Origin: Hemileia vastatrix
Taxonomy: Eukaryota; Basidiomycota; Pucciniomycetes; Pucciniales; Zaghouaniaceae
Length of the DNA stretch: 64,000 nt
NCBI GenBank assembly: GCA_030280995.1
Contig: JASXTE010000001.1
Span: 23,755,106-23,819,105 of the forward strand
Reading direction: 5' to 3'
A model generated the notes under the pieces. That model had not been told where the DNA came from, made no database searches, and saw nothing but the letters and a program-made list of their open reading frames with translations. Positions 10,368 through 38,745 of the stretch are shown here, piece after piece. A program made the position numbers and the translations under genes. Numbering within the stretch: the stretch's first letter is position 1; every line of letters starts with the position of its first letter.

Positions 10368-12917
10368 TCAACACAGTTGAGTCCAGAATGTGGATACAAA
10401 CAATGAGACTCTATCTGAAATAATATCATTAGGTAAGCCGTGTTTGGAAAATACATATTCTAGAAACAATTTTGACAAATCCTCTGCTGTAGCAGTAGTA
10501 GTGGTTTTAATAAAAATAGACATTTTTGAAAATCTATCTACTATTGCTAATATAGCATCAAAATTATTAGAAAGAGGAAGTTGAGAAATGAAATCCATCA
10601 ATAAAGATTCCCAAGGTTTAGAGGGAATAGGAAGTGGTTGAAGCAACCCATGCTTCTGGTGACGGGGAGCCTTATTCCTATTACATTCATAACAAGCTAT
10701 TATATAGGCCTTGATTTCTCTGGTCATACCTGGCCAGAAGAAATCCCTTTCTATTGACTGGTAGGTTTTATCAACCCCAAAATGACCAGCTAATGGAGAA
10801 TCATGTCGACTATTGAAAATCCATAATTTTATTTCATTGTTGTTGGGTATGACTACTCTACCTTTGAAAACTAATAGACCTGATTCAATACTAAATCTTT
10901 TGGCCCCTTGCTTCAAGAGTATTTTGTCTTTTAACCCTAAACAATAATTGTCCTTCGACTGAGCTTTGAGGATGTTGGATAGTGGATTTTGAAAGGATTG
11001 AATTGTCATCAAATTAAGTTGATGAGTTGTTAACATTGATTCGTTGAAAATTGATTTCATATTTGCTGGGTTCTTGTCAGCAAATGCATCCCCCCGCTGT
11101 GGGTAAAAGTTGTCCTGACGTGACAAGATATCTGGGACAATGCAGCTCTTACCTGGGCGATAGGAAATAGAAAAAGGAAATTCAGACAGAAATTCAGCCC
11201 ACCTGCCTTGACACCTGGTTAACACTTTGGAAGACATGAAGTATTTCAAAGCATTATGGTCTGTTAAAATTTGAAAAGGACTATCTAGGCTGAGAAGAAA
11301 AGAGCGCCATTTTTTAAGACAATGGATAATAGCTAAAAGCTCTTTGTCATGAATTTCATAATTTAATTCTGCTGCAATGAGTTTGCGTGACTCAAAAGCA
11401 ACAGGATGAAACAATTTTGTTCCAGGATTTAATTGAGAAACGACCCCTGCGATAGCATAATCGCTCGCATCTGTCTCAACAATTGTCAAAGCAGAAGGAT
11501 CAAAGTGTCGAAGAATTGGAGCTGTGGTGAAAGTAGTCTTCAATTCTTTGAATTCCTTTCGTGCTGTAGAAGTAAAAACAAAAGGAATATCTTTTCTAAG
11601 AAGAGAGGTAAGATTGGAAATAGTTTTAGAGTAATCTTTAATAAATCTTCTATAGAAATTTTCAAAACCCGAAAATCCTTGGAGGCATTTAACGGTTTTG
11701 GGCTCAGGCCATTCCAGGACTTTTTGGACCTTTTTGTCGTCCATGACTAAACCAACAGTGAACAACGTAAAACCCAAAAAATTGATTGATTTAAGATGGA
11801 ATTCACATTTATTGTGCTTGGTGTAGAGACCGTGATCTCGAAGTTGATTTAGAACCTGTCGACCATGATGAATATGTTCATCTAGTGTCTTCAAGAAAAT
11901 TAAAATATCATCTAGATAGACAACAACAAATTGTTTGAAAACATCTTGGAAGATGTCATTAACAAAAGTTTGAAAATTTGATGGTGCGTTACACAATCCA
12001 AAAGGCATAACTAAATATTTAAAACTACCAAATCTAGTGCACATTGCAGTCAGTGGTTCATGACTTTCCGCAATGCAAATAAGATTGTAAGCGCCTCTAA
12101 GATCAATTTTAGAAAAGAAATTAGCACCATTGAAAAGGGTAAGAAGCAATGACATAGGAGGAACAGGATATGCATTCTTCTTAGTGACTGTGTTGAGCTT
12201 TCTATAGTCAACACACAACCTAAGACTACCATCCTTCTTCTTTACAAAAAGAACAGGGGAGCTGGTTGGGGATTTACTGGTTCTGATGAAACCTTTGGCT
12301 ACATTCTCTGCAATGTAGTCTTAAAGAACTTGAGATTCATCCTTCGACAAAGAATAGACAGGACCTACCAGAGGTACTGTACCTATTAACTCTATTTGAT
12401 GGTCGTAGGGTCGATGAGGTGGTAACTTATTGGCCTTGCGGATTGAGAAAACATCAAGGAAATCATGATAGATCTCCGGTAGAGTTGATTTAATGGTTTC
12501 AACGTTGATTTGGTTGTCCTCATCATCTTTGAGAGAATCTATCAAGGGAAGACCAGAATTGAGAGAGCAGAATCTGATTACTTTGAGGAAATTTAAATCC
12601 TCTTTGAGTGAAGTCATTGAGCTAGAAGGGTTAGCCAATTGCTCATTTAGAGAAAGATCAGATACTTGCAAGTCATCTGGCAGAGATTTGTCCTCTAGCA
12701 GGACATTGTCAGGCGGGTTGTTTAACTCCCTATTGACCTGCATTGAAGAATCAGAAATATACTTAGTGCGTGGGGTGATCAATCCCCGTGTCCAATCAAT
12801 TTCAGGATTCCAATGCGTTAAAAAGTCATGGCCAAGAATTGTATCATCCATTCTTGGGGCATCCAAGACTGATAATTCCCACTTGAAGGGGGAAAGTTCA
12901 GAAAGTTGAAAACCCAT
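10368..12917 (-). pseudogene. Chromovirus RT, RNase H and integrase core (copy B)
   Basis: A 616-codon open stretch (12218-10368) carries reverse transcriptase (MCVDYRKLN, MPFGLCNAPSNFQ, catalytic YLDD), RNase H (ETDASDYAIAG, ELNYEIHDKELLAI, TDHNALKYF), and the integrase zinc finger (GHFGVDKTYQ...CYECNRNK). The integrase core follows (MDFISQL, SDRVSLF). Upstream, 12917-12321 encodes the protease-RT linker (HDFLTHWNPEIDW, then VPLVGPVYSLSKDESQVL) and ends at a TAA. In-frame RT residues (DYIAENVAKGFI...) continue past that stop, so the TAA is a nonsense mutation. The open stretch ends at TGA after FWTQLC, a stop shared with copy A. Confidence 0.9.
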
Positions 12918-13180
12918 AAAACTTTCTTACTTACCCAATATATGGGTTCCTCTGATTCAACCAAGTAAATTGGAGTTCGATCAATATCTGTAAATGTCAG
13001 TTGTAACTTCTCGGCAAAAGATAAACTGACAAACAAAATTGAAGCTCCAGAGTCTATAAGACAACTGAAGGAGATATCCTCCTCAAAAAGAATGAATCTT
13101 AAGCAGTTTAAGGCAACTCCAGTCCTTAAGACATGGAGGTTCTGTGCACTGGGAGAGATAAGATAGTTTGCTTTGCACAC
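12818..13180 (-). pseudogene. Retropepsin-like aspartic protease (copy B)
   Basis: The ORF encodes FILFEEDISFSCLIDSGASI, whose DSGA is the active-site motif of retroviral-type proteases, followed by the expected hydrophobic strand pattern (LFVSLSFAEKLQL). It would cut the Gag-Pol polyprotein. It lies directly downstream of gag in the sense of the element. It overlaps the linker ORF (12917-12321) in another frame, so one frameshift has occurred near 12900. Confidence 0.75.
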
Positions 13181-13194
13181 AAGTAAACTATCTA

Positions 13195-14367
13195 CTAGTT
13201 TTTTGACTTCAAACTAGTACCTTCTCTTTCCTTCAATTTTACACAATCTTTCAGCTTGTGCTTACCCCCACAATACATACATAACCCATTATCTGCTTGT
13301 CTCTTCCTCTCAGCTTCTTTAAGTTCCCCTTTAGGATCCAGTACCTTGCTGATATCGCCTGGGGTCGAGCTTTTTGGTTGAGGTTTGTCTTTTCCCTTAT
13401 TGGGTTTGGATTGAGCTGTCCGTGGGTGTGTAGAAGATCCCGATTTAAAATTTAGGCCTTGAGATTTGTTGGCATATTGACTATGTTGAAGTCGTCCTTG
13501 GTAAACGCCGTTGAGTTCAAGGGTTCGATCCATTAAATCCGTTAAAGTAGTCATCTTCTGACCGTGGAGATTTAATTGATCCAGAATCCTCGAAGGAAGT
13601 CCTTTTTTGAAATGATACCTAAGGGCAGCATCATTCCAACCTACATGAGTTTGAAGTGCTCTGAAGTTCAAAATATATTCAGAGGCTTTACCATTATCAC
13701 TAATGCGAAGAAAATTAAGTTCAATTTCTGAGTTGTCAGTTTCATTAGGGTCACCAAACAACGTGAAGAGTTGGTCTTCAAACTTTGCCCAGTTATTAAT
13801 AAGTAAGTGGGTTTCTGTCGAAGAGAGCATGAGAAGATAAGGCTCAAACCATCTTGCTGCTTTCCCGGCTAGGAATGAAGAAGCGTAAATAAACTTTGAT
13901 TGGTAGTTATTGAAGGTTCAAAGGTCATTATGGAACAGGATTTTGCAGGCTTGCTAAAAGGGTCACAATATTCCTGGATGTTCTCCATCTAATTTATCAG
14001 GAGATTTCATGGAAGGAGTTTTGAATTTAGATCCCTCCGAAGACGTTGTATTGGAAAGGGTCTTCATGAAAAGTCTCATGAAGTCCTCCAGCAAATTAGA
14101 TGGTCCAGGTTCCAAAGGTTGACCAGAAGTGTGAGTAGCAGGGGTGGATGGTGCCTCGTGCATTGTATCCTCTCCTTCTTCATCATCACTAGAATCATCA
14201 AAATCCTGTGGGATATCTTCTACAGATTGGACTGAATGTTGCCGTTCCATTAGGTTGAGTGGCTCCAAGGAGTGAGTGCGGGAAACAGGCCATGTGGCTG
14301 TTGGCCTGCCTCTGGTGCGAGCTCTAATAGTAGCGCCCGTAGGAGGAGTGCGTTGAACAGGTGCCAT
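13195..14367 (-). pseudogene. Chromovirus gag (copy B)
   Basis: The N-terminal piece (14367-13963, 134 codons from ATG) is Pro/Thr- and Asp/Glu-rich. After a break at about 13963-13830 the capsid-like part follows (13830-13195): INNWAKFEDQLFTLFGDPNE, ASEYILNFRALQTHVGWND and LRYHFKKGLPSRILDQL, typical of the retrotransposon gag domain. It ends with a basic region and one zinc knuckle LCMYCGGKHKLKDC (CX2CX3HX4C, one residue shorter than the canonical CX2CX4HX4C). Gag forms the particle and binds the RNA. One frame break plus an internal gap make it non-functional. Confidence 0.85.
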
Positions 14368-15718: not shown

Positions 15719-15940
15719 GGGAATCTACCTCTTTTTCAGTAAAAAATAAGTATATAATTGCATGTTACTTGGTCATTTCATAATGAATTTTAATATTCAA
15801 CCTCCCTATGCAGTATCTCTTACTAATCACTACATTTAGTTAATATTCAACCCTGGACTTTTGGAGTCATTAAATAAACCTTGACTGCTAGTTATTTACA
15901 CATGTCATTCAATTTTCTTAATGAATAACTTGGTACAAAA
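15719..15940 (+). repeat. Left long terminal inverted repeat
   Basis: About 210-220 bp, diverged but collinear with the reverse complement of 31194-31400 and with the direct copy at 40959-41120. Confidence 0.6.
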
Positions 15941-16343
15941 GAATAAGAGTATACTATTTCCTATCTATGTTTAGACAGCACTTTTTCTAGTGGTTTCTTG
16001 GCATATTTTAGTAATTGAGGCTTGGAATGTGCAGCCAGTAGTGTAAAATAGTGAAAATCTATAAAATCTGCTGATGAGTAGTGAGTATTGTGACTTGAAA
16101 AGATAATTTGTGAAACAATGGTGGAATCAAGGTCACAATTAAGTATCTTGATGAGTGATACAAAACAAAGAACATTTAGTATGGAGAGGTGCAAGTTAAT
16201 GATGCAAAGTAAGTATCTGTAAGTATATATACTTACTTGTACCCAATATTAACTGAAATGAAAAGCTAAGGGCATCTACCACTGCATTGGTAACACCCCA
16301 CTCCATGCATATTCTGGCACCGTTTCATTTACACCTCACATTA
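15941..16343. other. Interior of the long-TIR element, no gene
   Basis: No coding region is supported. At 16270 a further GGGCATCTACCACTG sequence resembles the same PIF-type terminus, so another end or a tandem insertion may lie here. The next Harbinger begins after TTA at 16341-16343. Confidence 0.35.
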
Positions 16344-16666
16344 GGGGATGTCAGTTTTTGGAAATCTGTGTTTAAAAATCTCCATTTTTTCTAAGTGCAG
16401 ATTTCCAAAACACACTGGTCCCAACACTGGTGGATTTAAAAAGTGAAATAAGTGACTTCTTTCACTTAAATCCTCACTTTCTCAACCAAAAGTTCTGATC
16501 TCATGATAAAGTCTCATTTCAATAATATTTCAGAATCATCCCATTCATATGCAACACTCCACAGCATAAAACTTTATAGCTCAAAGAATTGTACAGCATT
16601 TACATTTCTTGCCATAAAAGATTTATGCCTTCCTAAATCTCAAATCATGATAAATTACATCAAGAA

Positions 16667-17884
16667 ATGACTTTCATAGCTCTTTATCTGCGCTTGGACT
16701 CTGATTGTGATTCTGATTCTGATCTTGAAGAAAATTTTGTCTTTTTATCAAAAATTCCCAGGAAAGTTACCTTTTTCCCAGAATGCCTCAAGTACTTCAT
16801 ACCCTTAAGTACACCATTCAAACACTTCTTAACCTATCTGAGAACAGTTTTAGAAAGTTTTTCAGGACTTCTCAGGAATTTTTCCTTAAATTGATTGAGC
16901 TTCTTCAGGATCACCCCTTGTTTCATAATAATTCTCAAAAACAACAATTTTATCCTTCAATTAAAGTGGGCATCACACTATGTTTTTTTGGTTCCAATGG
17001 TAATGGAGCTTCCTGAAAAATATTGTAAAATGCCTTTGATTTAGGGTAAGGTTCTGTTAAAACTTATACAAATTGATGCATCACTGCTATCAACTATTTG
17101 GAATATCAAATTTTCACCTCTCCAACAAAAGAAGTGCAACTTGAATCATCTCAGGTTATGAAAACGGAAGTTTTACCAGGATGTATTGGCTTTTTTGATG
17201 ATACATTTATTCCTTTGAGTGAGAAACCTACTTAAGGTGGAAACATTTAATTTTACCAAAAAAAGAAGTAGCTTATTTTTTAATTCCTTTCATTATTCAT
17301 CATACTAACAAAAAAAACTATATCTTCTCTATAGATATTCAATTTCTATTCAGCTTATATGTGAATTCAATAAAAATTTATTTATATATTTTCTGCCTAT
17401 CCTGGATCCTGTAATGCTTCCTACATCTTATAAAGAGTGCAAATTTTAAAAGAATGTAAAAAATTCTTCAATGAAGATCAGTATCTTCTGGTAGATTCTG
17501 CTTATGTGGATTGAAATAATTTACTTCCTAATTATTTGGGAACATCTTCAGAAGACAGACCAAATGCTAAGCTCAACAATCATTTGGTATAGTCAAGATT
17601 CCATATTGAACATTCTATCATAATCTTGAAAGGTTTTTTTTTCTATTTTAATGAAATAAAGAATTCCTCTTAGAAATAAATCCAAAATGGAGGCAGAGAT
17701 CAACTGGATTCTGTGTTTCACTATACTTCATAACCTACTCACTGACCTCAAAGATAAATGGTTAGAGTTTTATGAAGATGAAGAATTCAAAAAACTTCAC
17801 ACTATATCCAAAACTTATATTTATCAAACCACTGACATAAGGGAAAAAATTCTTTCAATCACACTAGCACATTGGGATATTTAG
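16667..17884 (+). pseudogene. PIF/Harbinger transposase, decayed (outer element)
   Basis: Successive frames encode TFIALYLRLDSDCDSDSDLEE, FRTSQEFFLKLIELLQDHP, LGSNGNGA-like text, PGCIGFFDDTFIPLSEKP (first catalytic Asp region), LLVDSAYVD, RFHIEHSIIILKGFFF (catalytic Glu region) and INWILCFTILHNLLTDLKD. Block order matches the better-kept sibling at 28461-29768 and the DDE_4/HARBI1 family. Many frameshifts and stops are present. The transposase would cut and paste the element together with an ORF2 partner. Confidence 0.8.
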
Positions 17885-17961
17885 CTTTATATTGTTCTTG
17901 AATTATGAAGAATCTTATTAAACTTGATTTTTACTGTGATAAGCTCCATCATATTATCTAC

Positions 17962-18640
17962 TATTAGTCAAATTATTTCTTTATTTCTTCTTTCACATCT
18001 TTGTGAAAGTCTTTTAAAACATCTCCTATATAATCTTGTACATCATTAAACCTTTCTATATTTGTTTTACTCACTAGCCTACTGATTTCTAATACTTTTT
18101 TTCCTATCCCTATTTCAACCCTTCAACACACTTTTCAATAAACTCCAGGATAGCTTCTTTGTGCTTAGTATCATCACATTCCAATCTCAAATTCCAAACA
18201 CATTCTTCATCCTCTGAATTTATATGATTATTTTTTGATTGTTTTCTTACTAATGAAGTTCTAAATTTTAGTCATATATTTGTATTTTCAAATAACTACT
18301 TAAAAATCACTTAGAATAATTATCTTTATCCTTTTTCTGGGAATATATTCTTTGGTTGAAGCTTCTTCATCAAAAACTTGTTCGGTAGGAGTAGTTCTAT
18401 ATAATGGCCTATTAGAATTGATATACTTAAAACTCAAATATATCAAAGATATATAATGAAGCTCTCTTAGATAATATCTCTTTCTGTCTCATTAGTCAAG
18501 TATTGAGTAGATTTAAATTGGCCTTGAGTATCTGGATTGATCTCATGGACATCACTTTGTATATGTCACAATTGAAAAAACTCACATGTTGAACTGAATC
18601 CTTTTACTCCTGTGTTTTTAACACAATATTAATTAGACCT
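17962..18640 (-). pseudogene. Unrecognised broken gene, convergent to transposase
   Basis: Minus-strand frames give long protein-like text between stops: SDVHEINPDTQGQFKSTQYL, NRPLYRTTPTEQVFDEEAST, HINSEDEECVWNLRLECDD, HKEAILEFIEKCVEGLK and LEISRLVSKTNIERFNDVQD, then a charged helical end. The composition suggests an acidic, helical C-terminal region. No equivalent is seen in the inner element. It could be a third cargo gene of the outer Harbinger or a remnant of another transposon. The family is not recognised. Confidence 0.35.
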
Positions 18641-20413
18641 TTCACATTAAGTACAAGAAATTCAGTATCCACTTGTGTTATTATAGTCTTCTGTACTGTA
18701 CTGTTTCTGAGTATATTATGATGTTGGTAGAGAAATCATAATGGGAAACTATAAAGGACTAAGTAAAATGTTTTGGTTTTTGGTGCAAATTAACAATATT
18801 TGTTTTTTGAGATTTAAAGCAAAAGAGCTTCATTTTTATTACCCACACTTGTATTTTCTTGTACCAAATTATGAAATGAGACCTACTTATTTGGGTGCAC
18901 TTAAAATGTTTAGAGCTTTTTATTCCTTTGTGCTATCATTTTTGAAAAGAAGTTAAATTATAAAATGTAAGTCTTCATGAAAGTAAATGTATAAAACATG
19001 TATCTTTATTCTCAAAAGAAAGGCTATGATTAAATAATTTATTTTAATATGTTCTTCTTTTCTTTTTGAATTTTTTTTGTATAGGTGTATAAAATTTATT
19101 TTCCAACCAAATTTCAAAAAAAAAGAAAAAAAAGGTGATTCCCTACCCTGAAATTTACTATGGGAGGGGGTCGAGATTACCAAATTTTCATTTTTATTTC
19201 ATAAATTAATAATTAAACCAATCAAAAAAGATAATCAACAAACTAAAAGTAATGGCATTCAGAATACTACCTGCAAATGAGATCTGATGTGACCAAAGTC
19301 AAAGAATACATTTGACATGGAATTTTATTTTGACCTCATTCAAACAATTAAATGCTTGAATTAGTATCTTTTTAAGCTTTTATGGTAGGGATGGTAAGAA
19401 TTTTAGAAGGAATGGTTACTAATTGATAAAGAATTAAAGCTAGAGTGGAAAATATTAGACTTTATTTTTGTAATTTAAATAAATATAACATCTATTTCAC
19501 ATTGAACAATTATATATTTAAAATAAGTTAAAATTCTATTAACTAATTATTTCAGGAATTGATTTAATCATTTATGATATTAAATAATAAAAATTTTAAT
19601 TTCTCAAATAATAATATTCAATGCTTTGATGATTTTTAATTTAAATTTAATCATAATAATATTGAAAAAGATACTTTAAAACAACAAAAGGGAACCCCTT
19701 TTATACTGAATAGTAAGTTCAACCTGAATTTTGTTGAAGTCAACAAAATCATTGATAAAACTAAAATAAAAAATATAGTGCAATTAATATTTAATTTAAT
19801 GATGAAATGAAAATAAACCTTTAAATTTTTAGAGTGAGGCTTTAATAAAATAAATAAAATAATTTAAATGCACCTGTATACCAAATATTTAATCATAAAT
19901 TAAATTTTAATAAAACTATATCCCTTAATGTTCCAAGGAGATAATAAAGACCCTCTCTAGTTCTCCCTGTCCCCCCTCTATCTAGCTTCAAACAAGGTCT
20001 AAGACTCAGTAATTTAAAGGACTTAGATCTACAACTTTTCTGTATCTTTTTCCCCATAAACTCAATTAAAACAATAATCATAATTTTGTAAGTTTAAATA
20101 AATTAATTGTTTTATGGTTAAATAATATAAATAATGTAGTTACATAATAATTTATAATACCTATAGAATTTAAAATATTAATATTATAATATTTTTAATA
20201 ATTAAGTAAGAAATTCTATCAGGCCAGTTTACATGTATAAAATAAGTTACTGGCTGACAGCCTTTATATGGAAGCAAGGACCAACTACTTAAAACTGATG
20301 ATTATCTTTTATGGCTAATTAATTATAAATTTATGAAAAGAAAATGAATCTTTGAAAATCCTTTCTTTACTATATTTAGCCTCCCTCCCTAATGACTTAC
20401 TTTTCATTGAAAC
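18641..20413. other. AT-rich stretch without a supported gene
   Basis: Very AT-rich (TAAATAAAATAA-like). Short ORFs such as 18741-18956 have no family signal. It lies downstream of the dioxygenase gene inside the outer Harbinger. Confidence 0.4.
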
Positions 20414-21528
20414 TTAACATCTCACTTTATTTACCCTTTTTATCAAATTTTGGTTGATCTGGACTGAAAATCCAAAATGAGTAAACCTTTTACAAGTTTG
20501 TAATCCAGGAGGAGCTTGTGTTGCTTGATGGTTATCCTGAGAAGAATTCCAAATTTCTTCCACAGCTACATTTGCTAATCCAAATTCAATAATACAATTA
20601 TGATCAGGGGAGTATAGTCCATGGCTTTTGACTAAAGCAGTTAAAGGATTTTTCTGACCAGTGATGGGATCAATATAACAGAAAAGACCAAATGTGTGGG
20701 AAATTAGAATTATTTTTATCAACATGAATATTGTTATATAATCCTCCAAAGCTAATGATGACATTAGAAGAAAAGATATAATCATCTTCAAGTGTGATCC
20801 ATTTCAAATCTGTCCAATTTGGTATGCCTTCTATCATGGCTAGTTCATGATTATATTCAAAAGCACAAATGCATAATTTTTTAATTTCTTTGTCTAAAAC
20901 TTATAGAAGGATCCCAAGAGTTTTCATCTTTCTTAATCATCCTTCATTTCACTAGAGCTTAATTTTATAATAAAGGAATAAATACATACTATTGGAGTAA
21001 GAAAATATATTTATTCAAAGTAAATAATGATAAACTCTTACCAAGAGATTTTCCCTTTTAATAACCAGGTCCAAATCTAAGTCCAATCATAATACCTACT
21101 GCAATTTTTTTATTATTCAAAGGTTGTTCAAAAAAATATATCTTATAAAAAGTTGTTATAAGATCTAATAATTTCTTAAAAACTACATCTTGAACTCCAT
21201 CAAATCAATGAACCTCTAAAATAAATTGAGGTTTGTAACAATTACTCACAACAGCAACAAAAAGATTCTTTCCACTAACAGTTAATTACTTGATTTTTTC
21301 AGGTAGTAATTTCAGATACCTTTTTTTCTTACATATTTTAGTTTTATAAAAATTCAGATTTTCTATATGGCCAAAGTATGCTTGACACCATTGTTTCATT
21401 AAAACTTATTTATGTTTTTGATATGATACCCTCTTCCCCTCAGAAATAGTTGGTTTTCCATTAGAAATATTCAGTGATTCATTCAAATGTTTAATTTAAT
21501 AAAGAGATGAGAGTGAAGAAGAGGACAT
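20414..21528 (-). pseudogene. Tet/JBP-like 2OG-Fe(II) dioxygenase, outer element
   Basis: Minus strand. The N-terminal part (AYFGHIENLNFYKTKI, YKPQFILEVH, VGIMIGLRFGPGY) is followed by an intron after SLG (gtaaga) as in the sibling gene. The catalytic half reads NVIISFGGLYNNIHVDKNN, then FCYIDPITGQKNPL, HGLYSPDHNCIIEFGLANV, EEIWNSSQDNHQATQAPPG and FTHFGFSVQINQ. The metal-binding HxD is His-Val-Asp (20718-20726) and the distal His lies in DNHQAT (20528-20530). This pattern matches Tet-like 2OG-Fe(II) oxygenases, which in the Tet/JBP family oxidise 5-methylpyrimidines in DNA. Stops in the N-terminal half and a frameshift after HVD make it a pseudogene. Family call is from motif memory, so moderate. 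Confidence 0.6.
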
Positions 21529-21614
21529 TTTTTTTAAAAGATTTGATTGAAGAAAGGGATTTAAAGATGAAAGAGATGAAGAGGACATGAAAAAATCTTT
21601 CTGAAGATAAAAAA

Positions 21615-21905
21615 AAGTCAGTAAAATGCTTGGAAATGTTTTGAAAGTATTTCCAAGGCAATTCAGAGCAAATAAAAAACTTACTCAGAATGCATGGAAA
21701 CAGGAAGAAAATGTCAGGGGACTGTTTTGAAAGTGATTGGAAGAAAGAAAATAAAAAAATTTCATTAACATGCTTGGAAACATCTTGGAGACATTTTTGA
21801 AGCATTTTAAAGGTAATTCCAAGAAAGAAAGAAATAACTTACCTAGAACACTTGGAAACAGTCAGAAAAAATGCTGGGATTTTTTCTAAAGTTATTGGAA
21901 GTAAA
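21615..21905. repeat. Degenerate ~78-bp tandem repeat
   Basis: Four loosely similar units share a pattern of 'atgcttggaaa', then 'tttgaaag...attccaag', then an A-rich end. They lie between the dioxygenase start and ORF2 of the outer Harbinger. Similarity is judged by eye. Confidence 0.35.
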
Positions 21906-22698
21906 ATACACAAAAGAAACAAAAAAAATAAAAAAATAAAAGTTAGTAAGAGAAAGAAAAGGGAAAATAAATATTAGTAAGTACTAACCTGGGCTAAGCA
22001 TAAGATGGACCTATGATCAAAGAAGAAGAAATAAAGCAAGTAAAAAAGTTAGCAAGGGTGGAGAAAGCAAAGAGAGAAAAGAAAGAAAAAGGGGACAAAT
22101 GATATTAGAAAACATGAGGGTAAAGGAATGAAAAGATGAGAGGAATGAGAAAATTATGAAAATGGTGAAAAGAATAAAAAACACACAACTTGATGAAAAG
22201 GCAGAATAACAAGTGAAGAGAAAGATAGTTGAAGGGATCTGGAAGGATAATTTCATCATGAAGGCGCTATGATATGTGTTATGATATGTTTTATGAAATG
22301 CATTCTGAAATCTGTTATGCAGATGTAACAAGAAAAAAAACATGGGCACCTGGTAGAAGGTGCCAATCCCTATCTTTAATTTGACTCAATTTTAGCTCAG
22401 TTGTAATTCTGCTGGAGAGACTTCACACTGAAAAATGAGAACACTAGCTTGCACAATATTAAAGAAAATTTACTCTTAAATCAAAACTTAATATAGCAAT
22501 AGACACCTGCTAGCAGGTGTGACTTGATTTTTTGTGGTGTGCATGTATTGAAAACAGAAATTTTTATGGAAAATGCAAAATGACTGTTAAAAATATACAA
22601 TTTTAAAGTTATGGAGAGGGAGGAAAAGAATATAATCAGGAAAAAAAAGTTTTCATTGTGAATATGAGTCATCTATTGCAAAAAGAAAAACCAATTAA
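21906..22698. other. Purine-rich spacer, no supported gene
   Basis: GAAAGAAAAGGG-like runs; the T-rich minus-strand ORF at 22017-22349 is a by-product of this composition. A palindrome CACCTGCTAGCAGGTG at 22505-22520 is the only feature noted. Confidence 0.4.
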
Positions 22699-23314
22699 TC
22701 AGTTAAATAATTCAAGTAATTTTTTAATGTCCTCATAAAATTGGCCATTTTCTACCCATTCCATAATAGATTTTTTTTTAATTTTCTTGCTTTTCCAAAT
22801 CAAGACTTTACATTTCTCTTTCAAAATCATGCTTTTTTGTTTTCTCTGAGAAAAGATGAGCTCTTTCCATCTCCTCTGCATCAAATCTAGCCTTTTCGAA
22901 AATTGATTGAAGAAAAAAACATGTTCCTCCAAATCTAAGGCCCATTTATCTTTCATTAGCATATGATCAAACTTCATTTTCTCAAAGTTGAGGGCATTTT
23001 TTTCAATAGAGGATTTTGCTGAGAAAATTGAATAGAAAAAAAGAAATAAATATGTTATTGAAGAAGGTATATAGTGGCCAAATCTTACTTGTATCTTTTT
23101 TCTCAAAATAATTATAAAGGGAGAAAAAAGAGCTGGCTGAAGTATTACCACATTTTAAAAGAAGTTTCAAGTTCATTGAAGTTAAGGCTTGGAACTTTAG
23201 TTTGGATTTTGAGCTAGAGGGTTCAGGCAGTTCATCTAAAGCTGCTTCCAAAGCAGAATTCTCATTGCCAGAATTGTTAATATTTTTTGAAATTTGAGCT
23301 TCAGTAGGAGGAGA
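22699..23314 (-). pseudogene. ORF2 of outer Harbinger, exons 2 and 3
   Basis: This is the 3' part of the gene whose first exon lies at 30693-30003, separated by the 6.6-kb inner Harbinger. Exon 2 starts at 23314 after ttatag (SPPTEAQISK..., MEAALDELPEPSSSKSKLKF, YFEKKD) and exon 3 ends with MEWVENGQFYEDIKKLLELFN. The inner element's own ORF2 has the same exon structure and the same ending (EDIKKLLDLFN). Frameshifts interrupt exon 3. Function is described with the exon 1 entry. Confidence 0.7.
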
Positions 23315-23712
23315 CTATAAGAGGAGGAATGAGAATTTTAGATAAGAAACAATGAAAAAAGAAAAATTAATCATACATTAGGGGTTGTCAGTTCTGGCGA
23401 ATCAGCACTTAAATTTTGCAAAAAAGTCACTTATTTCAAGAAAGGGTGTCAGTTATGACCTCAAATCAGCACTTTTTTCCTGTTTTTTTTCACAACCACA
23501 TTTTGGCCACAACATCCCTTCCTTTCTTACCCCATCCCTGTTGCATGTGACACACTGACCTTCCTCGCTCCCTACCCATCAATCCTTGGCACACACCCCT
23601 TCCTAACATTTTCACCATTTTATTACAACATTTTTAACAGGCATGTATACATTCTTTTTTACTTATTTATTCTACCTCTTAATCTATTTTCTTGTTATGT
23701 ACCAGTTTTATA

Positions 23713-25022
23713 ATACCTCCAAGACATTCCAAATCTCAAAAGGTAAATCAAAAATCTGCTTCATCACAAAAGTCTCCTCATAAAGCAAGCCCCACACCTA
23801 AAAAATCAAAGTTGGGTCAGCTAAAAAAGGATGATTATCTGATCATAATCAACTTCCTTAATGTAAAATCAAATTATGATGCTTGTTTTGGATGTGAAAA
23901 GTTCACTTGTATCGGATGCCCACCTTCTTTAAAGGTTAATGGCTACTTATTGATTGCCAATGAAGTAAGGAAGAAAACAAGGGGGAGAATCTATGTCAAT
24001 CCTAAACAAATGAAGGAGAGATTTAAGAGTTATCAATCAAAATATAAAAAGGCTCATCATGCTGCAAATGAAACTGGCTTTGGTATTGACAATGATGATT
24101 TGGAGATTGGAATTACTACTGCTTCCAAAAAGCTCAATGTCATGTGTCCTTTCTATGAGGAAATGGATAATCTTTTTGGCTCCCGAGTTGATGTAAACCC
24201 ATGGTTTCTACATGATACTACTAAGGATATACCCTCTGGATCCAAACCTTCCTATAATCCTCCCAACACACTTTTACTTGAAGGATATCAATCCCCTCCA
24301 CTTTCTAACCATAGTTCAGCAGAAGATGATCCCGACTATCAAGCAGAACAATTATATTGCAGCAGATCTGAATCCTCAAAGCCCCAAAATTTAGATGTAT
24401 GTTTACTTTTTCTTTTTTCTTCAATTCCTCTCTAAATTTCTATTTCTTTCTAGTCTCCTCCTACTCAAACTCAAACTCTATTAAATAATCTCGATGATGG
24501 AAATGTGAATCCCGCTTTAGAAGCTGCTTTAGATGAACTTTCTGAAGCCTCTTTTTCAAACTCTGAACTAAAGAAACGACCCTCAACTTCAATGAACTTG
24601 AACCATCTTTTAAAACGTGGTAATACTTCAACAAGCTTGATTGGCTCCCTTGAAGATTATTTTGAAAAAAAGATATAAGTAAGATTTGTTTACTATATAT
24701 CTTATTCATTAACTTATTCACTTATTTATTTCTATTTAATTTTCTCAGAAAAATCAACTATTGTAAAAAATGCCCTTGACTTTGAGAATATGAAGTTTGC
24801 TCATATGCTAAGGAAAGATCAGCAAGCCTTATATTTGGAAGAAAAAAAATTTGAGGCAGAGGAGATGGAAAGAGTAAATGACCATCAATTTCAAAGAGAA
24901 ATGGCTACTTGTGAATTGGAAAAACAAGAAAGTTTTAAAAAAAAGATTTCATTATGGAATGTGTAAAAAATGGCCAATCTTATGAGGACATTAAAAAACT
25001 GCTTGACCTTTTCAATCAATAA
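23713..25022 (+). pseudogene. Harbinger ORF2 (Myb/SANT-like partner protein), inner element
   Basis: Three exons: 23713-24396, 24454-24678 and 24749-25022, with gtatgt...ctag and gtaaga...ctcag introns. The product has a basic N-terminus, a Cys cluster CFGCEKFTCIGC (CX2CX4CX2C), and GRIYVNPKQMKERFKSYQSK, a helical block typical of Myb/SANT-like transposon proteins. A Pro/Ser-rich linker and a coiled C-terminus (EEMERVNDHQFQREM, ending EDIKKLLDLFNQ) follow. In Harbinger elements the second ORF binds DNA and helps import and target the transposase. The start codon reads ATA where the outer copy has ATG. One-base losses in A-runs near 24672 and 24940 shift the frame, so this copy is dead. Confidence 0.7.
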
Positions 25023-25741
25023 ATTGTTTTTCTAGTTAAATTAATTTTGTTTGATTTCTTTTTGGTAATATTTCCTTATATGCTGACTTATAAAAGGTCT
25101 TGAATATAGTAACTTTTTTTTGACAAATTTTCAAAAACATCATACAATTTTTCTATCTTTACATTCAAGTCAATAAGTTTGCTTATACTTTTTTTTGACA
25201 AAAATTTGAAAATATAATACAATTTTTCTATCTTTACTTTCAAGTCAATAATTTTGCTTATCTAAATACTGCTAAGTCATTAAAATTCTATATCTTTTTT
25301 GAAGATTTGGCAATACCTCCTCTTGAACTTTATTGAAACAAGGGGTGGTGGGTACCACCAAATTTTTCTAAATCATCAATTTCACATGTCAGATTTAAAA
25401 ATTTGGAAATATGCTCCCCTGCATTTTATTGAAGTAAAGGGTGAAAGTCACCAAAATTTAATATAATTACATAAATTAATTAATATATAAATAAGTTATG
25501 TCAAATCTACTACTTTTAAAGTAATGACAATTCCTCATTCCAAAATGCAGATCAAGTCTAGAAACTAAGTTTGGGACTTTCCACAGCTATAGGCTAGAGG
25601 AACCCCATGAAACAAATTAATTTTTTCATGATTACCTTTTATACAACCCAAGGTCATTGGCTCATTACTTTAATTTGGTAAAGTGACATATCAGATTTAT
25701 TTATTAAAAATTTATGGAAGAATATTAAATATTTGGTGACT
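25023..25741. other. AT-rich spacer between convergent genes
   Basis: Lies between the ends of ORF2 (plus) and the dioxygenase (minus). A repeated block 'acaaatttttctatctttac...caagtcaataa' occurs at about 25145 and 25218. No gene is supported. Confidence 0.4.
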
Positions 25742-26924
25742 CTATTGATCCCCATACTTTTTAGATCTACATAAAGAATTTTTAAATTTATTACCTTTTT
25801 CTTCTTTTTTTAACTTGTTTATTTGTTGGATTAACATTTGACTGATCTTGAAAGAGCAACCAAAATGTGTGAAGTCTTGACAAGATTCCCAACCTGGAGG
25901 AGCCTTTGTGGTTTGGTGATTATTGTAAGAAGAATTCCAAACTGTTTCAATGATTTCATTTCCTAATCCAAAATCGATTAAACATCTATGATCTGGGAAA
26001 TATAGTCCATGTCCTTTAATTTTAGCAGGTGACGGAATAGGTTGACCAGTGATAGGATTAATATATGAGAAAATTCCATAAGGTAATTGGCATCATTTGA
26101 GTCAGTGTGAATTCAGCTATGAAATCCAGAATGAGTTATTATAATATTTGAAAACATTAGATAATCACTGCTAATATCTTCCCATTCAGAGTTGCACCAA
26201 TCTGGTATTCCAAGTCTTGTAGCAAGTTCATGATTTTTTTCAAAAGCTTTATTGAAGAGTTTTTCAAGTCAAAGAGCAAGAAATGAATTAAATGAAGGTA
26301 GTGTATTCCATTTTTGAAAATCATTATCTAATTCAGATTTAGATAAAGATCTGAGTAAAGAATATATGCCTATATAATTAAATTCAGTAATATGATATTA
26401 AAAAATCAAGAAATAATTTTAAACATACCAAGAGAAAATCCTTTATCAAATCTAGGTCTCCATCCAATACCAATCATAATACCACCCAAAAAATTCTTAT
26501 TCCTTAAAGGTAAGCAAACCAAAGCCATTTAATAGAGTGTTATGATGAGATTGCAGAGTTGATTAAATGATTCATCTTTTAAACCATTAAAAGAATGGTT
26601 TTCATAAATAAATTGAGGTTTGAAAGTATTATTAATAACAGCTTTAACTTCATCACCTCCAATTTCAGTTAAATAATGTATATTTTCAGGTAACGTTTTT
26701 GGAAAATTGTTTTTTTTTTCAACTTTAGTTTTATAGTACTTGATTTTTGAAATATGGCCAAATATTTGATCCAAGTGAATTTTTTTTAAATATCTTTTAT
26801 TTCAATACTCTTCATTTTTCGTCAATGTTTTAGATGATGATTGAAAAGAAGTTGAATTTGAAGATGATAATGAAGTTAAAGAAGAAGAGAGTGAGGTAAG
26901 TGGTGAATCTGAAGTTAAAGACAT
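25742..26924 (-). pseudogene. Tet/JBP-like 2OG-Fe(II) dioxygenase, inner element
   Basis: Minus strand from ATG at 26924. A Ser-rich start is followed by QIFGHISKIKYYKTKVEKKN, TEIGGDEVKAVINNTFKPQF, GGIMIGIGWRPRFDKGFSLG and an intron (gtatgt...tatag, about 26375-26430). Next comes LGIPDWCNSEWEDISSDYLM, and then the catalytic core: NIIITHSGFHS, HxD as His-Thr-Asp (26101-26109), FSYINPITGQPIP, HGLYFPDHRCLIDFGLGNEI, ETVWNSSYNNHQTT with the distal His (25916-25918), and FTHFGCSFKISQ. The order fits the Tet-like 2OG-Fe(II) oxygenase fold. Relatives in basidiomycetes are known to travel with KDZ transposons. A few stops and one frameshift just after HTD inactivate it, but the metal ligands survive. 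Confidence 0.65.
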
Positions 26925-27119
26925 GTATTTTTCTACATAAAAAATTGTTACTTTTAAAATACCCAAAATTATACATTAAAAAAAACTCACTTAATTTAAA
27001 TTAAAGAAAATCCCCAAAAGACAAATAAGAATTTTTTTTATTTCACTTGAACTTGATGAATATTTTTCTCTAAAATTCAGAAAAAAATAAAAAATAAAAA
27101 AACTGTGAAATTTTTTTAT

Positions 27120-27560
27120 CACTTCCCCATTCCCCTCAATTCCCCCCTCCAAACCCCTCTCCCACCCCCCCAAAACCCTTGTACAAACCCCCCCAAACCT
27201 CCCCGCATCCTTCAAATTCCCCCCAATCCACCCCTTCAATCCCCCTCATAACCCCCCAATCCCCTTCAATCCCCCTCATAACCCCCCAATCCCCTCCAAT
27301 CCCCCTCATAACCCCCCAATTCCCCCCTCCTATCCCCCTCCAAATCTGCCAAATCCCCCCTCCAAATAACCCCCAATCCCCCCCTCCAATCCCCCTCAGA
27401 ACCCCTCCAATCCCCCCTCCAATCCCCCTCAGAACCCTCCAATCCCCCCCTCCAACCCCCCCTCCAATCCCCCCTCCAATCCCCCCTCCAATCCCCCCTC
27501 CTATCCCCCCTCCTATCCCCCCTCCTATCCCCCTCAAAATCTCCCCAATCCCCCCCCCTC
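27120..27560 (+). repeat. C-rich minisatellite (CCCCCTCCAAT-type)
   Basis: About 440 bases built of short units such as CCCCCCTCCAAT, CCCCCTCATAA and CCCCTCAGAA. The opposite strand is G-rich with many runs of four to six G. It breaks the otherwise AT-rich composition sharply. The Pro- or Gly-rich ORFs here are composition artefacts. Confidence 0.85.
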
Positions 27561-27692
27561 ATTCCTCCTTAACAATTTGCTAACGAATCTTTAAGTTACT
27601 GAATGATTAATCATAATCCTTCATTAACTTAATGATTTGCTAACAAATCGTTCAGTAACTTAACAATTTGTTAGTGAATCGTTAAGGAGGAA
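27556..27692. repeat. Large hairpin joining C-rich and G-rich arrays
   Basis: CTCATTCCTCCTTAAC at about 27557 is matched by GTTAAGGAGGAATGAG at about 27683. The inner sequences (aatttgctaacgaatctt...gttactgaatga against tcgttcagtaac...caatttgttagtgaatc) are also complementary. The loop lies around 27610-27640. Confidence 0.75.
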
Positions 27693-28000
27693 TGAGGGGG
27701 GGTAGGGGGATTGGGGGGATTGCAGGGGGGGTTGGGGGGGTTCTGAGGGGGAAAGGAGGGGGGTTCTGTGGGGGATAGGAGCAGGGGGTTGGAGAGAAAT
27801 GAATGAGGGGAGGAAATGAGAACACCAACAAGGGGGAGAAAGAGAGAGATGAGACCAAAGAGGGAGAATAGGGAGGTTAGAGTGAGCCAAGGAGGGGGAA
27901 ATAAGGCAGCCAAAGAGGGGAAAAGGGGGACATATCCAATCCAAGGAGAGGGTAAAGGTGGGAAAAAGCCCAGGCCAAGGGGGGATAAAGAATAGGATGA
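27683..28000 (+). repeat. G-rich tract, inverted partner of the C-rich array
   Basis: Runs such as GGGGGGGTAGGGGGATTGGGGGGATT change gradually to GGGAGAAAGAGAGA-type purine sequence. The first ~100 bases mirror the C-rich array across the hairpin. Confidence 0.7.
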
Positions 28001-28460
28001 ATGAGAGAAAAGAGGGAAGGGAGAGAGAAAAAAAAAGGTTAATTTTACCTATAAATTTAAAAAAAGCACTTACAAAAAAAACCAAAAAAAAACTACCAAA
28101 AAAAAAATTAGCAAAAAATTAAGTAAAAATGAAAAAAATGACTTGCCTGGAGAGATGAGTTGAGAAAAAAAAGAAATAGAATTGAAATTGGTTGAGTGAT
28201 GTAAGAAGAGAGGAGGAAACAGATATGAGTGAAGAAAAAAAAAAAAGAGAGCGACTGAAAAAATATGCATTTTCAGAAAATATGTGATTTCATGTTGAGT
28301 TGATGAAATATAACACAGAGAGATAAAAAAAAAATTAAGACTTTTAACAGAAAATTCAAAAACAAAATAAATATGCAAAAAAAAAAAAAAAAAAAAATTA
28401 CCATTCTCAGTGAATAAAACATACAAATTGATCATTTGAAGAGTATGAAAAAAAAAAAAA

Positions 28461-29768
28461 TTAAAATTGTGTTGAAAAATTTTGGAGTGTTATTGGAAGA
28501 ATTTTTGCCCTTAAAGTAGTCGATTGAGAAATAGAAGTGTTGGATATAGTTGGAGGTGAATCAACTTGTTCATCTTCATACAGCTCTAACCATTGATCTT
28601 TGAGGTCAGCAAGTAGGTTATGAAGTATAGTGCAACACAGAATCCAGTTGATCACTGTCTCCATTTCAGACTTATTTCTAAGAGGACTTTTTAATTCCCT
28701 TAAACTAGAAAAACAGCCTTTCAAGATTCCAATAGAATGTTCAATACGGACTCTTGACTTTTCCAAATGATTGTTGAACTTGGAATTTTGACTGTCTTCT
28801 GAAGCTGCTCCCCGAAAAAGCAGGAAGTACATACTTTCCATTTGCATAAGCAGAATCTGCAAGAAGATACTAATCTTCATCAAAGAATTTTTCAGGTTCA
28901 TTTTAAATTTGCATTCTTTGGAAGACGTAGGAGTCATGACATGAGCCAGGATAGCCAGCAAAGAATGATATAAATTTTTTGTTAACGTCACATATAAGCT
29001 GAATGGAAATTGAATATCTATAAAGAAGATACAGTTGTTTGTGTTAGTTTAAAAGAGAATGAAAGGAGTTAAAAATAATCTACCTTGTTTTATGGTCAAA
29101 TTAATTGGTTCCACCTTGAGGAGGTTTCTGGCTCAAAGGAATAGTAGTACCGTCAACAAAACCAATACATCCTGGGAAGCCCTCTGCTTGCATAACCTGA
29201 GATGATTCAAGTCGCTCTTCTTTTGTTGGACAGGTGAGAAGTTGAGATTCCAAGGAGTTGATGGCAGTGATGCATTGTTTGGTATAAGTGTTAACTGAAC
29301 CATACCCTAAATCAAAGACATTTTTTAAAGATTTCAAAGTGGCTCCATTACCATTTGAACCCAAACGACATAGTGCGGTGGCCAATTGAATTGAAGGATG
29401 TCGTTGTTCTTTTTGAGAATTATTGTGAAATATGGGATGATCCTGAATAAGCTCAATCAATTTAAGGAAAAATTCTGGAGAAGTCCTGAACAACTGTCTA
29501 AAACTGGGTGTAGATAGGTTAAGAAGTGTTTGGATGGTGTACTTGGGGGTATGAAGTACTTGAGGCTTTCTGGGAAGAAGGTAACGTTCCTGGGAATTTT
29601 TGATAAAAAGACAAAATTTTCTTCCAGATCAGAATTAGAATCGCAATCAGAGTCCAAGAGCAGTTCAAGAGCCATGAAAGTCATTGCTTTATGTAATTTA
29701 TCATGATTTGAAAGTGAGGAAGGCATGACTCTTATATGATATGATATGAAAATGTACATGATGTACAA
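28461..29768 (-). pseudogene. PIF/Harbinger DDE transposase, inner element
   Basis: Minus strand. The start (TFMALELLLDSDCDSNSDLE) is followed after one frameshift near 29580 by FRTSPEFFLKLIELIQDHPI, LGSNGNGATLKSLKNVFDLG and FPGCIGFVDGTTIPLSQKPP, which holds the first catalytic Asp. An intron follows (about 29072-29010). After it come YSISIQLICDVN (second Asp), AGYPGSCHDSYVF, LLADSAYANGKYVLPAF, KSRVRIEHSIGILKGCFSSL (catalytic Glu) and NWILCCTILHNLLADLKD. These are the DDE_4/HARBI1 blocks in order. Frameshifts remain at about 28880 and elsewhere. It faces ORF2 from the opposite end of the element. Confidence 0.85.
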
Positions 29769-30002
29769 TGTTTTGAGTTATGAAGTGTTATTCTGCAGAG
29801 TGCTGTGTATGATTGGGATGATGATGACAAATCAGTGAAATGGGACTTGATGGTGAAATCAGCACTTTTGGTTGATAAAGTGCAGATTTGAGTGAAATAA
29901 GTGACTTATTTCATTTTGAAATCCACCAGTATTGGGGCTAGTGTGTTTTGGAAATCCGCACTTAAATAAGTGCGGATTTGCCAGAACTGACACCTTCTAT
30001 TA

Positions 30003-30693
30003 AAAGATTGGGGCTATGAGGACTCAGATTTTCTCTGAAATAACTCTTCTGCTTGATAGTTGGGATCATTTTCAGCTGAACTATGGTTAAAAGCAGGAGG
30101 GGATTGATCTTGTTGAAGAACAGGTGTGTTGGGAGGATTATTAGATTGTTGAGAACCAGAGGGTATATCCTTGGTAGTATTGTGTGTAAACAAAGGGTTG
30201 AAATCAACTTGGGAACCAAAAAGATTATCCATTTCCACATAGAAAGGATACATGACATTGAGATTTTCAGAAACAGTAGTAATTAAAATCTTCAAATCAT
30301 TATCATAAATACTAAAAGCCAGTTGAAGTGGTAGAAAAATGAGCTTTTTTATATTTGGATTGATAACTTTTGAACCTCTCCTTCATTTGCTTAGGATTGA
30401 TGTGGATTCTCCCTTTTGTTTTCATTTTTTACTTTATTTGCCATCAACAAGAAGCCATTGACCTTTGATGAAGGTGGATGTCTGAATTGGGTGGACTTCT
30501 CACATCCAAAACATGCATCATAATTTGATTTAATTTGAAGAAGTTGATGATGATGAGATAATCTTCCTTTTTTTTTAGCTTTCCAGACTTTTATTTCTTA
30601 GTTAAGGGGCTTGCATTACATGAAGACCTTTGTGAGGAAGCATTTTTTTTTTTTTTGGGTTGCCTTTTGAGTGTTGGATTGTTTGGGAGGCAT
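30003..30693 (-). pseudogene. ORF2 of outer Harbinger, exon 1
   Basis: It starts at ATG 30693 (MPPKQSNTQKATQKKKK), then a decayed Cys cluster (CFGCEKSTQF...), KVNGFLLMAN, LNVMYPFYVEMDNLFGSQVD, NTTKDIPSGSQQSNNPPNTP and NHSSAENDPNYQAEELF. It parallels the inner ORF2 exon 1 throughout. The reading is cut after SPNLL by the inner transposon at 30002; exons 2 and 3 resume at 23314. By analogy with Harbinger Myb-like proteins it would bind DNA and assist the transposase. Several frameshifts are present. Confidence 0.7.
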
Positions 30694-30808
30694 TATGAAA
30701 CTGGTATGTTACAAGTAAAGAGATGAAGAGGTTGAAAACATTAAAAAAAAAAAAAAAAAGGAAAAAAAAAAACATGCCTGGTTAAAATTTTGCAATAAAA
30801 TTATTTTA

Positions 30809-30939
30809 AATCTCAGTGAGGGGGGGGGTGTGTGTGTGTGTGTGTGTGCTGAGGATTGATGAGAGGATGGAGAGGTCTGGGTGTCACATGGGACAGGGAC
30901 AAAGTCGGCAAGGATAGGGATGATGTGTCCAACATGTGG

Positions 30940-31016
<77 letters not shown>
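30809..31016. repeat. (GT)n and long A-tracts near the outer element end
   Basis: G-run plus GTGTGTGTG at about 30820-30848, and an almost pure A-tract at 30943-31016 with one interrupting G. Lys-rich and Phe-rich ORFs over it are artefacts. Confidence 0.85.
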
Positions 31017-31019
<3 letters not shown>

Positions 31020-31193
31020 TGAAAAAAAAAAAAATTGTGAAAAAAAAAGTGCTGATGGTGAGGTCATAACTGATACCCATTTTTTGGAAATAGATGACTT
31101 TTTTTTTTTTGGAAAAATTGAAGTGCTGATTTGGTTTGAAGTCTGCACTCAAGTTAAGTGCAGATTTTCTAGAACTGACACCTTCCCCTATTG

Positions 31194-31400
31194 AGAAGAG
31201 CATTGAATGACATGCATAAAAAATTAGCAGTCAAGGTTGACCTAAAATGACTGCCAAAGTCCCAGGGTTGAATATTAACTAAATGTGGTGATTAGTAAAA
31301 GATACTGCATAGGGCGGTTGAATATTGAAATTCATTATGAAATGACTCAAGTAAAATGCAATCATATACTTATTTTTTACCGACACGGAGACAGATGCCC
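31194..31400 (-). repeat. Right long terminal inverted repeat
   Basis: Reverse complement partner of 15719-15940, ending ...GAGACAGATGCCC at 31400 and followed by ATA. Confidence 0.6.

Positions 31401-32029: not shown

Positions 32030-38745
<6,716 letters not shown>

What the first reader, a model, noticed from the sequence alone, without database searches (positions are those of the whole stretch)
25742..26924. Tet/JBP-like DNA dioxygenase carried by a PIF/Harbinger transposon (inner copy)
Seen: inside an element with Harbinger TIRs, TTA duplications, ORF2 and DDE transposase lies a gene with the 2OG-Fe(II) core order HxD (HTD), FPDHRCLIDFG, distal His (NNHQTT) and FTHFG. Known: Tet/JBP enzymes oxidise methylated pyrimidines, and fungal members travel with KDZ transposons. 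Inference: a Harbinger line has taken up such an enzyme, perhaps to erase methylation silencing of itself. I do not know of a described case.
Basis: partly seen in the sequence, partly recalled or inferred. Interest (0 to 1): 0.87.

Follow-up and report, generated by a model that had tools for sequence, protein, structure and literature searches.

The report
Transposon carrying a DNA-demethylase-like gene
A high-copy jumping gene of what is most likely the coffee leaf rust fungus carries a gene related to Tet enzymes, which in other organisms help remove DNA methylation marks; rust transposons with such genes were already in print, and the copy in the window is a broken relic of a family that still has an intact-looking member.

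Summary
Window 23380-29998 is a PIF/Harbinger element (TIRs, 3-bp target duplication, Myb-like ORF2, DDE_Tnp_4 transposase) containing a gene of Pfam PF20515, Tet-like 2OG-Fe(II) oxygenase. It is nested in the ORF2 of a second such element (16343-31189). The genome is most likely Hemileia vastatrix. Diox and transposase are collinear with the window copy in 20 of 20 fetched copies (of 40 scored matches). One young copy elsewhere has perfect TIRs and an open diox frame (393 codons). The window copy is dead: four in-frame stops and a frameshift. Between two gene families of this genome the diox is under purifying selection (dN/dS about 0.10). The class is not undescribed: Kojima (2025, PMC12730594) reported TET+ Harbinger elements in Puccinia and Austropuccinia. 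New here: another genus; 3-bp ATT/AAT duplications shown by empty sites, not TA; a weak Myb-like ORF2 match; a related family with the diox inverted; discordant gene and backbone similarity; CpG-bearing subterminal repeats. Against a lasting protective role: old copies have lost most CpGs, no less than the few gypsy pairs I could compare. Enzyme activity is untested; structure prediction failed.

The parts
23380..29998 (.). inner TET+ Harbinger element (family F1), 6619 bp, flanked by ATT duplications at 23377-23379 and 29999-30001
   Evidence: TIR pair and gap-free empty sites in ORF2 paralogues; same content in fetched copies
23380..23411 (+). left TIR, AGGGG..TGTCAGTTCTGG..
29967..29998 (-). 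right TIR
23683..24966 (+). ORF2, Myb/SANT-like protein, in ORF pieces
   Evidence: PF13837 E 1.3e-3, below the gathering cut-off; homologues in L029 and L030 E 2.4e-3 and 4.6e-3, also below
25742..26924 (-). Tet-like 2OG-Fe(II) dioxygenase gene, broken copy (4 stops, 1 frameshift)
   Evidence: PF20515; frames; 39 further scored copies
25189..25744 (-). 3' non-coding block of the diox gene, conserved between families F1 and F2; contains an inverted repeat (arms 25662-25741 and 25446-25526)
27100..28060 (.). GC-rich, strand-asymmetric minisatellite with a palindrome (arms 27552-27608 and 27646-27702) between transposase and diox
   Evidence: a similar block in L029 and L030
28486..29754 (-). 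DDE transposase, ORF pieces
   Evidence: PF13359 DDE_Tnp_4 E 3.6e-9 for the 3' piece; no match for the 5' piece
16343..31189 (.). outer TET+ Harbinger element (family F5), interrupted by the inner one; ATT at 16340-16342 and 31190-31192 (read by eye)
   Evidence: the script did not match the right duplication because that TIR end holds an indel
16597..17865 (+). outer transposase, decayed
   Evidence: inside a stretch of 81.6% nt identity to L029
20372..21375 (-). outer Tet-like gene, decayed, inverted relative to its transposase
   Evidence: PF20515 E 3.3e-7 and 6.4e-5 in pieces; tblastn with the L029 protein E 2e-73; same order and strand in other copies
22684..23376 (-). outer ORF2, 3' part
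30002..30540 (-). outer ORF2, 5' part, split off by the inner element

Best explanation
The gene is a decayed copy of a Tet-like dioxygenase that is a standing component of a PIF/Harbinger transposon family, most likely in Hemileia vastatrix. Shown: it lies with ORF2 and transposase between one TIR pair; the family amplified as such; a copy with an open diox frame exists; the protein sequence was kept by purifying selection while families diverged. Inferred: active copies make a 2OG/Fe(II) enzyme that oxidises methylated cytosine in CpG on the element's own DNA, so that its promoters, and the CpG inside its subterminal repeats (AAATCCGCACTTA, possible transposase or Myb-protein binding sites), stay usable. 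Copies that fall silent are methylated and lose their CpGs.
For: PF20515 matches. Diox plus transposase collinear in 20 of 20 fetched copies, ORF2 at least in part in 19 of 20 (L012 lacks it). L029: perfect 32-bp TIRs, open 393-codon diox frame, transposase in two exon-like ORFs, ORF2 open in pieces. dN/dS of diox exon 2 between F1 and F2 0.10 (bootstrap 0.055-0.164); transposase exon 2 0.14 (0.0-0.23). Iron triad in the open pieces of alignment A3: H271 23/23, D273 23/23, H336 22/23 of the rows with a letter there. The 11 matches (up to 2 mismatches) of the subterminal 13-mer in L029 all lie within 300 bp of an end; 50 shuffles of the element held 0.14 on average, 2 at most; 7 of the 11 carry CG, 4 carry AG. 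In the form AAATC[CT][GA]CACTTA, L029 has CG in 6 of 6; the 20 old copies, flanks included, read CG 29, CA 21, TG 17. CpG is under methylation-like pressure: 287 of 1257 dinucleotides at 63 inferred ancestral CpG columns are still CG, and C>T is 491/991 in TCG, 415/1523 in other CpGs.
Against: No activity, expression or methylation data. With one and the same measure, F1 old copies have 0.368 of CpG bases changed at 6.1% other divergence (210 pairs), gypsy pairs 6 of 16 at 4.2% and 6 of 20 at 8.2%: no sign that TET+ copies were spared, though the control is tiny. In old copies the triad itself is often lost: 7 of the 17 pieces covering HxD no longer read HxD. AlphaFold2 gave no usable model (mean pLDDT 35.0 and 34.1), so fold and 2OG site were not checked; after the distal His there is no conserved Arg, only K340 and H353. 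dS is near saturation, so dN/dS is rough. The 13-mer was taken from the TIR itself, so its terminal place is partly given.
Confidence: 0.58

Rival explanations
1. The dioxygenase is maintained for the transposon but acts on another substrate (N6-methyladenine, thymine, RNA, or a host factor), not on CpG 5mC.
For: Kojima leaves other activities of rust-type enzymes open and cites 6mA activity of CcTET. No PDB sequence match for the protein; the profile's three matches (E 1.4 to 2.4) are unrelated. Old copies show no sparing of CpG.
Against: CpG is the context under visible attack in this family, and CpGs sit in its subterminal repeats.
Confidence: 0.25
2. The gene is a passive passenger without benefit to the element.
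For: None of the 21 old copies listed (window copy included) has the gene open throughout; Kojima calls the transfers between transposons passive.
Against: dN/dS 0.10 between F1 and F2; aa identity 80% against 64% and 56% (transposase exons) and 49% (ORF2); found in families F1, F2 and F5.
Confidence: 0.08
3. The dioxygenase belongs to a separate nested mobile unit with its own ends that happened to insert into a Harbinger.
For: In F5 the gene is inverted relative to the transposase; diox and backbone similarities disagree; an inverted repeat follows the gene in F1, F2 and F5.
Against: In F1 the 20 fetched copies all have it at the same place; no TIR pair or target duplication around the gene alone was seen; F1-F2 homology simply stops; the same script found no such repeat in 7 F3 and 3 F4 flanks, apart from a 14-bp match in L036.
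Confidence: 0.08

Closest known systems
TET+ Harbinger 'PHISTA' transposons of Puccinia and Austropuccinia (Kojima 2025, PMC12730594)
   Same: Harbinger-superfamily transposase, a rust Tet-like gene and a third protein inside one transposon
   Different: Here a 3-bp ATT/AAT duplication with gap-free empty sites instead of TA; ORF2 gives a weak Myb/SANT-like match where PHISTA third proteins are said to have none; another host genus. An ATT duplication plus the first TIR base also looks like TA at both ends, so the published TSD may deserve a re-check.
Nuwa / canonical PIF-Harbinger elements
   Same: 3-bp duplication; transposase plus Myb/SANT second protein (as stated)
   Different: No dioxygenase is mentioned for them there
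Kyakuja-Dileera-Zisupton transposons with TET/JBP (Iyer et al., as cited; not read)
   Same: fungal Tet-like gene carried by a DNA transposon
   Different: different transposase superfamily
PF20515 proteins of Austropuccinia psidii (P0001, P0002)
   Same: 37% and 36% identical, same HxD region and THFGCSFQI motif
   Different: transposon context not examined; P0002 has D at the distal His position

Membership tests
PF20515 Tet-like 2OG-Fe(II) oxygenase | profile score over the curated cut-off | tested here: met
   window C-terminal piece 29.6 bits and L029 110 bits, cut-off 27; another window piece 23.9, below
PF20515 Tet-like 2OG-Fe(II) oxygenase | HxD...H iron triad | tested here: met
   23/23, 23/23 and 22/23 rows of A3, whose rows I chose for open frames; changed in 7 of 17 pieces of old copies that cover HxD
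PF20515 Tet-like 2OG-Fe(II) oxygenase | double-stranded beta-helix fold and 2OG-binding Arg/Lys | tested here: inconclusive
   models at mean pLDDT 35.0 and 34.1; K340 in 22 of 23, no conserved Arg near
TET/JBP enzyme (oxidises 5mC or thymine in DNA) | catalytic activity | not testable with these tools
   no assay
PIF/Harbinger superfamily | DDE_Tnp_4 (HARBI1-like) transposase | tested here: met
   PF13359 E 3.6e-9 (window), 5.5e-26 (L029), 3.3e-24 (L030); relatives of the L030 protein are named DDE Tnp4 and, further down, HARBI1
PIF/Harbinger superfamily | TIRs and 3-bp duplication | tested here: met
   11 of 15 element end pairs match by script, 14 of 15 by eye (L024 fails); gap-free junctions in unoccupied relatives for the window element, L029, L025, L027 and L028
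PIF/Harbinger superfamily | Myb/SANT-like second ORF | tested here: inconclusive
   PF13837 E 1.3e-3, 2.4e-3 and 4.6e-3, each below the cut-off
PHISTA (Kojima 2025) | TA dinucleotide duplication | tested here: not met
   empty sites fit a 3-bp ATT/AAT duplication; a TA reading leaves three bases over
PHISTA (Kojima 2025) | transposase clusters with Puccinia PHISTA | not tested
   the nine best hits of the L030 transposase are Puccinia and Austropuccinia proteins at 44-52%, but no tree was made and whether they are PHISTA is not known to me

The most novel reading that the evidence does not exclude
Rust Harbinger elements have an exchangeable cargo bay between the 3' ends of transposase and ORF2. 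A block of Tet-like gene plus its conserved 3' non-coding foldback is swapped or flipped in it between families, by recombination or by a mechanism of its own. The enzyme serves to keep the CpG inside the subterminal transposase or Myb-protein binding repeats unmethylated, so that it directly controls whether the transposon can be cut.
Probability: 0.2. Interest if true: 0.75.

Novelty: new variant of a known kind. Interest (0 to 1): 0.5.

Why it matters
It adds a rust genus with a very large number of Tet-like gene matches (150 scored of 10,849 first-look candidates) to the evidence that transposons carry their own demethylase-like enzymes. Old and young copies side by side make the anti-silencing idea testable by methylation calls on one genome. 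The discordance between gene and backbone and the flipped gene bear on how such genes pass between transposons, for which Kojima found no signature. The 3-bp duplication bears on the definition of PHISTA.

Tried and rejected
Separate nested element with its own ends: looked for, not found. Intron: the 393-codon frame of L029 includes about 20 residues absent from the A. psidii proteins, most likely an in-frame intron. TA-only duplication: rejected by empty sites. Structure prediction: one single-sequence and one 25-sequence job, both useless, so no fold search was run. PDB by sequence: nothing relevant. Protein search with an exon piece: none of 92 candidates passed. Gypsy control for CpG decay: 1 and 3 stretches with 16 and 20 CpG bases, too few to decide (same measure for F1). 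Rfam: 10 matches up to E 1, none at its family's gathering score, most of them microRNA families on the palindrome; taken as chance. Transposon context of families F3 and F4 and genome-wide transposase counts: not obtained.

Full report
What is there. Translation shows the stated motifs on the minus strand, but in separate frames, with four in-frame stops and one frameshift. Pieces searched apart match Pfam PF20515, Tet-like 2OG-Fe(II) oxygenase superfamily, at E 8.5e-07 (over the cut-off) and 4.9e-05 (below it); the N-terminal piece has no match. The neighbouring ORFs match DDE_Tnp_4 (E 3.6e-09; the 5' transposase piece has no match) and, below its cut-off, Myb_DNA-bind_4 (E 1.3e-03).

Anatomy. 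The inner element runs from 23380 to 29998, with ORF2 (+), diox (-), a GC-rich minisatellite and transposase (-), TIR AGGGG..TGTCAGTTCTGG and an ATT duplication. It sits inside the ORF2 of an outer element, 16343-31189, whose transposase (+), Tet-like gene (-) and ORF2 (-, in two halves) are all decayed. The two duplications of the outer element were read by eye; the script did not match its right one.

Which genome. The window is in a 747,610,610-base assembly of 791 contigs; the longest contig among my loci has 71,415,227 bases. The published Hemileia vastatrix Race I assembly has 747.98 Mb, 794 scaffolds and a largest scaffold of 71,415,227 (PMC10652848, part 1 of 2 of the text read). I take the organism to be coffee leaf rust; this is an inference from these numbers.

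Copies. The DNA of the gene has 40 scored matches: the window copy and 39 others at 93-95% identity. I fetched 20 of these 39, ranks 2 to 21, with about 4.4 kb on each side. Diox and transposase are collinear with the window element in 20 of 20, ORF2 at least in part in 19 of 20 (L012 lacks it; L015, L016 and L019 have gaps). Both ends were found by script in 12 of these 20; with L029 and the two window elements that makes 15 end pairs. Of these, 11 have identical 3-bp flanks by script, ten ATT and one AAT (L029); by eye 14 of 15, the exception being L024. Unoccupied relatives with no gap at the junction exist for the window element (22 matches in ORF2 copies, one of them its own ORF2), L029 (two gypsy elements of the window, 92% and 74%), L025 (in L022), and, at lower similarity or with a less alike junction, L027 and L028; one further match, L024 to itself, is not an empty site. 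A TA duplication would leave three bases unexplained.

Age and decay. The 21 copies differ from one another by 5.6% on average in the diox stretch, and none of the 21 is open throughout. At 63 columns judged ancestral CpG (chosen partly because TG and CA both occur there, which favours decayed sites) 287 of 1257 dinucleotides are still CG; C>T is 491/991 in TCG and 415/1523 in other CpG contexts, while private C>T at other cytosines is 0.012 (private changes only, so not quite the same measure). So this family was exposed to CpG methylation or a RIP-like process with the TCG preference that Kojima cites for Pucciniomycotina. With one pairwise measure, F1 copies show 0.368 of CpG bases changed at 6.1% other divergence (210 pairs); gypsy stretches show 6 of 16 at 4.2% and 6 of 20 at 8.2%. 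Nothing here shows that TET+ copies were spared; the control is very small.

Intact relatives. A PF20515 search of the genome scored 150 of 10,849 candidates, each of the 150 over the cut-off, many with stops inside. I fetched two of these places with context and 20 others as short stretches. L029 is a young copy of the same family (F1): perfect 32-bp TIRs, a 393-codon open diox frame, transposase in two exon-like ORFs, inserted in a gypsy element. L030 holds a second family of genes, F2, in the same order (transposase, diox, opposite ORF2). F2's own ends are not established: only one TIR was found in L030, and the stretch beside it (7363-7806) resembles the transposase-side end of F1 (86%) and F5 (82%), so it may belong to another element. 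Of the 20 short loci, 9 are F1, 1 is F2, 7 form a family F3 and 3 a family F4, seen only as genes, without context (my sorting).

Selection and catalysis. Between F1 and F2 the diox exon 2 has dN 0.12, dS 1.2, ratio 0.10 (bootstrap 0.055-0.164), aa identity 80%; transposase exon 2 has ratio 0.14 and 64% identity, exon 1 56% (dS saturated), ORF2 ratio 0.24 and 49%. In the alignment of open pieces the triad is conserved in 23, 23 and 22 of 23 rows with a letter there. In old copies it is not: 7 of 17 pieces that cover HxD have lost H or D. AlphaFold2 failed twice.

Exchange. Backbone and diox tell different stories. F1 is close to F5 in transposase (81.6% nt) and ORF2 (74.9%) but far in diox (68%); F1 is close to F2 in diox plus 3' flank (79.0% over 1629 bases) but far in transposase (67.9%) and ORF2 (67.3% over 263 bases); F5 against F2 is about 66% in both transposase and diox. 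No tree or test was made. In F5 the diox points the other way from F1. This is not private to the window: five other F5 copies (two on C67, one each on C338, C194 and C631) match from the last part of the transposase through the bay, with the diox part beside it in the same order and strand. The F5 copy is decayed, so faster decay of its diox alone is an alternative. The non-coding stretch just after the diox is 85% identical between F1 and F2, while third codon positions of the adjacent exon differ by 40% (81/202), and the similarity ends abruptly. It contains an inverted repeat in F1, F2 and F5; the same script found none in the 3 F4 flanks and only a 14-bp match in one of 7 F3 flanks. Short parts of the stretch recur in two of the three F4 loci, L032 and L045. 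I cannot say whether this reflects function or recent recombination.

A possible target. In L029 the 11 copies of a 13-mer near AAATCCGCACTTA all lie within 300 bases of an end, in both orientations (50 shuffles: mean 0.14, maximum 2); 7 of 11 carry CG, 4 carry AG. The 13-mer was chosen from the TIR, so part of this is built in. In the form AAATC[CT][GA]CACTTA, L029 has CG in 6 of 6; the 20 old copies, flanks included, read CG 29, CA 21 and TG 17. That these are binding sites, and that the enzyme keeps them unmethylated, is inference.

What is known. Kojima 2025 (PMC12730594; outline, search passages, sections 10 and 23, and part 1 of 2 of section 24 read; supplements not seen) describes rust-type Tet-like genes in seven transposon lineages, among them 15 Harbinger families (PHISTA) with TA duplications and third proteins without Myb/SANT. 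Hemileia does not occur in its main text. My searches of the open-licence library showed no paper on this in Hemileia: searches gave none, one search listed 20 of 21, one search listed 10 of 4,913, and one search gave four papers with both Hemileia and Harbinger, seen as listings only. So the kind is known; the 3-bp duplication, the Myb-like ORF2, the flipped and perhaps exchanged gene and the host genus make it a variant.

Change after checking. The confidence of the main explanation went from 0.62 to 0.58 and that of the other-substrate rival from 0.22 to 0.25 because; the probability of the novel case went from 0.22 to 0.20 because the ends of F2 are not established.

Noticed in passing
window 15719-15919 and 31196-31400: The outer element is itself flanked by long imperfect inverted repeats (93 nt at 92%, 53 nt at 83%, 50 nt at 82%), as if it sat in the middle of another palindromic repeat.
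   Followed up: no
window 19375-20260: About 887 bases present in this outer copy are absent from other copies of that family, where the two matches join almost directly: a further insertion of unknown kind.
   Followed up: partly
window 27100-28060; L029:5297-5816; L030:2080-2750: Between transposase and diox lies a GC-rich, strand-asymmetric minisatellite with palindromes, similar in style but seemingly not in sequence between F1 and F2.
   Followed up: partly
21 copies of the inner element: Private C>A (G>T) changes at non-CpG sites are as frequent as C>T (0.0131 against 0.0120 per site), which looks unusual. Not compared with other repeats.
   Followed up: no
window 44167-50370 and 54774-58316: Two gypsy elements with long open frames are almost free of CpG (observed/expected 0.04 and 0.07), while a third (10368-13917) is at 0.43.
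   Followed up: partly
L030:7363-7825: A TIR end next to the F2 ORF2 resembles the transposase-side end of F1 and F5 (86% and 82%), so L030 may be a composite.
   Followed up: no
window 36625-37416: A reading frame with a run of 80 leucines, a simple repeat next to host-like reading frames.
   Followed up: no
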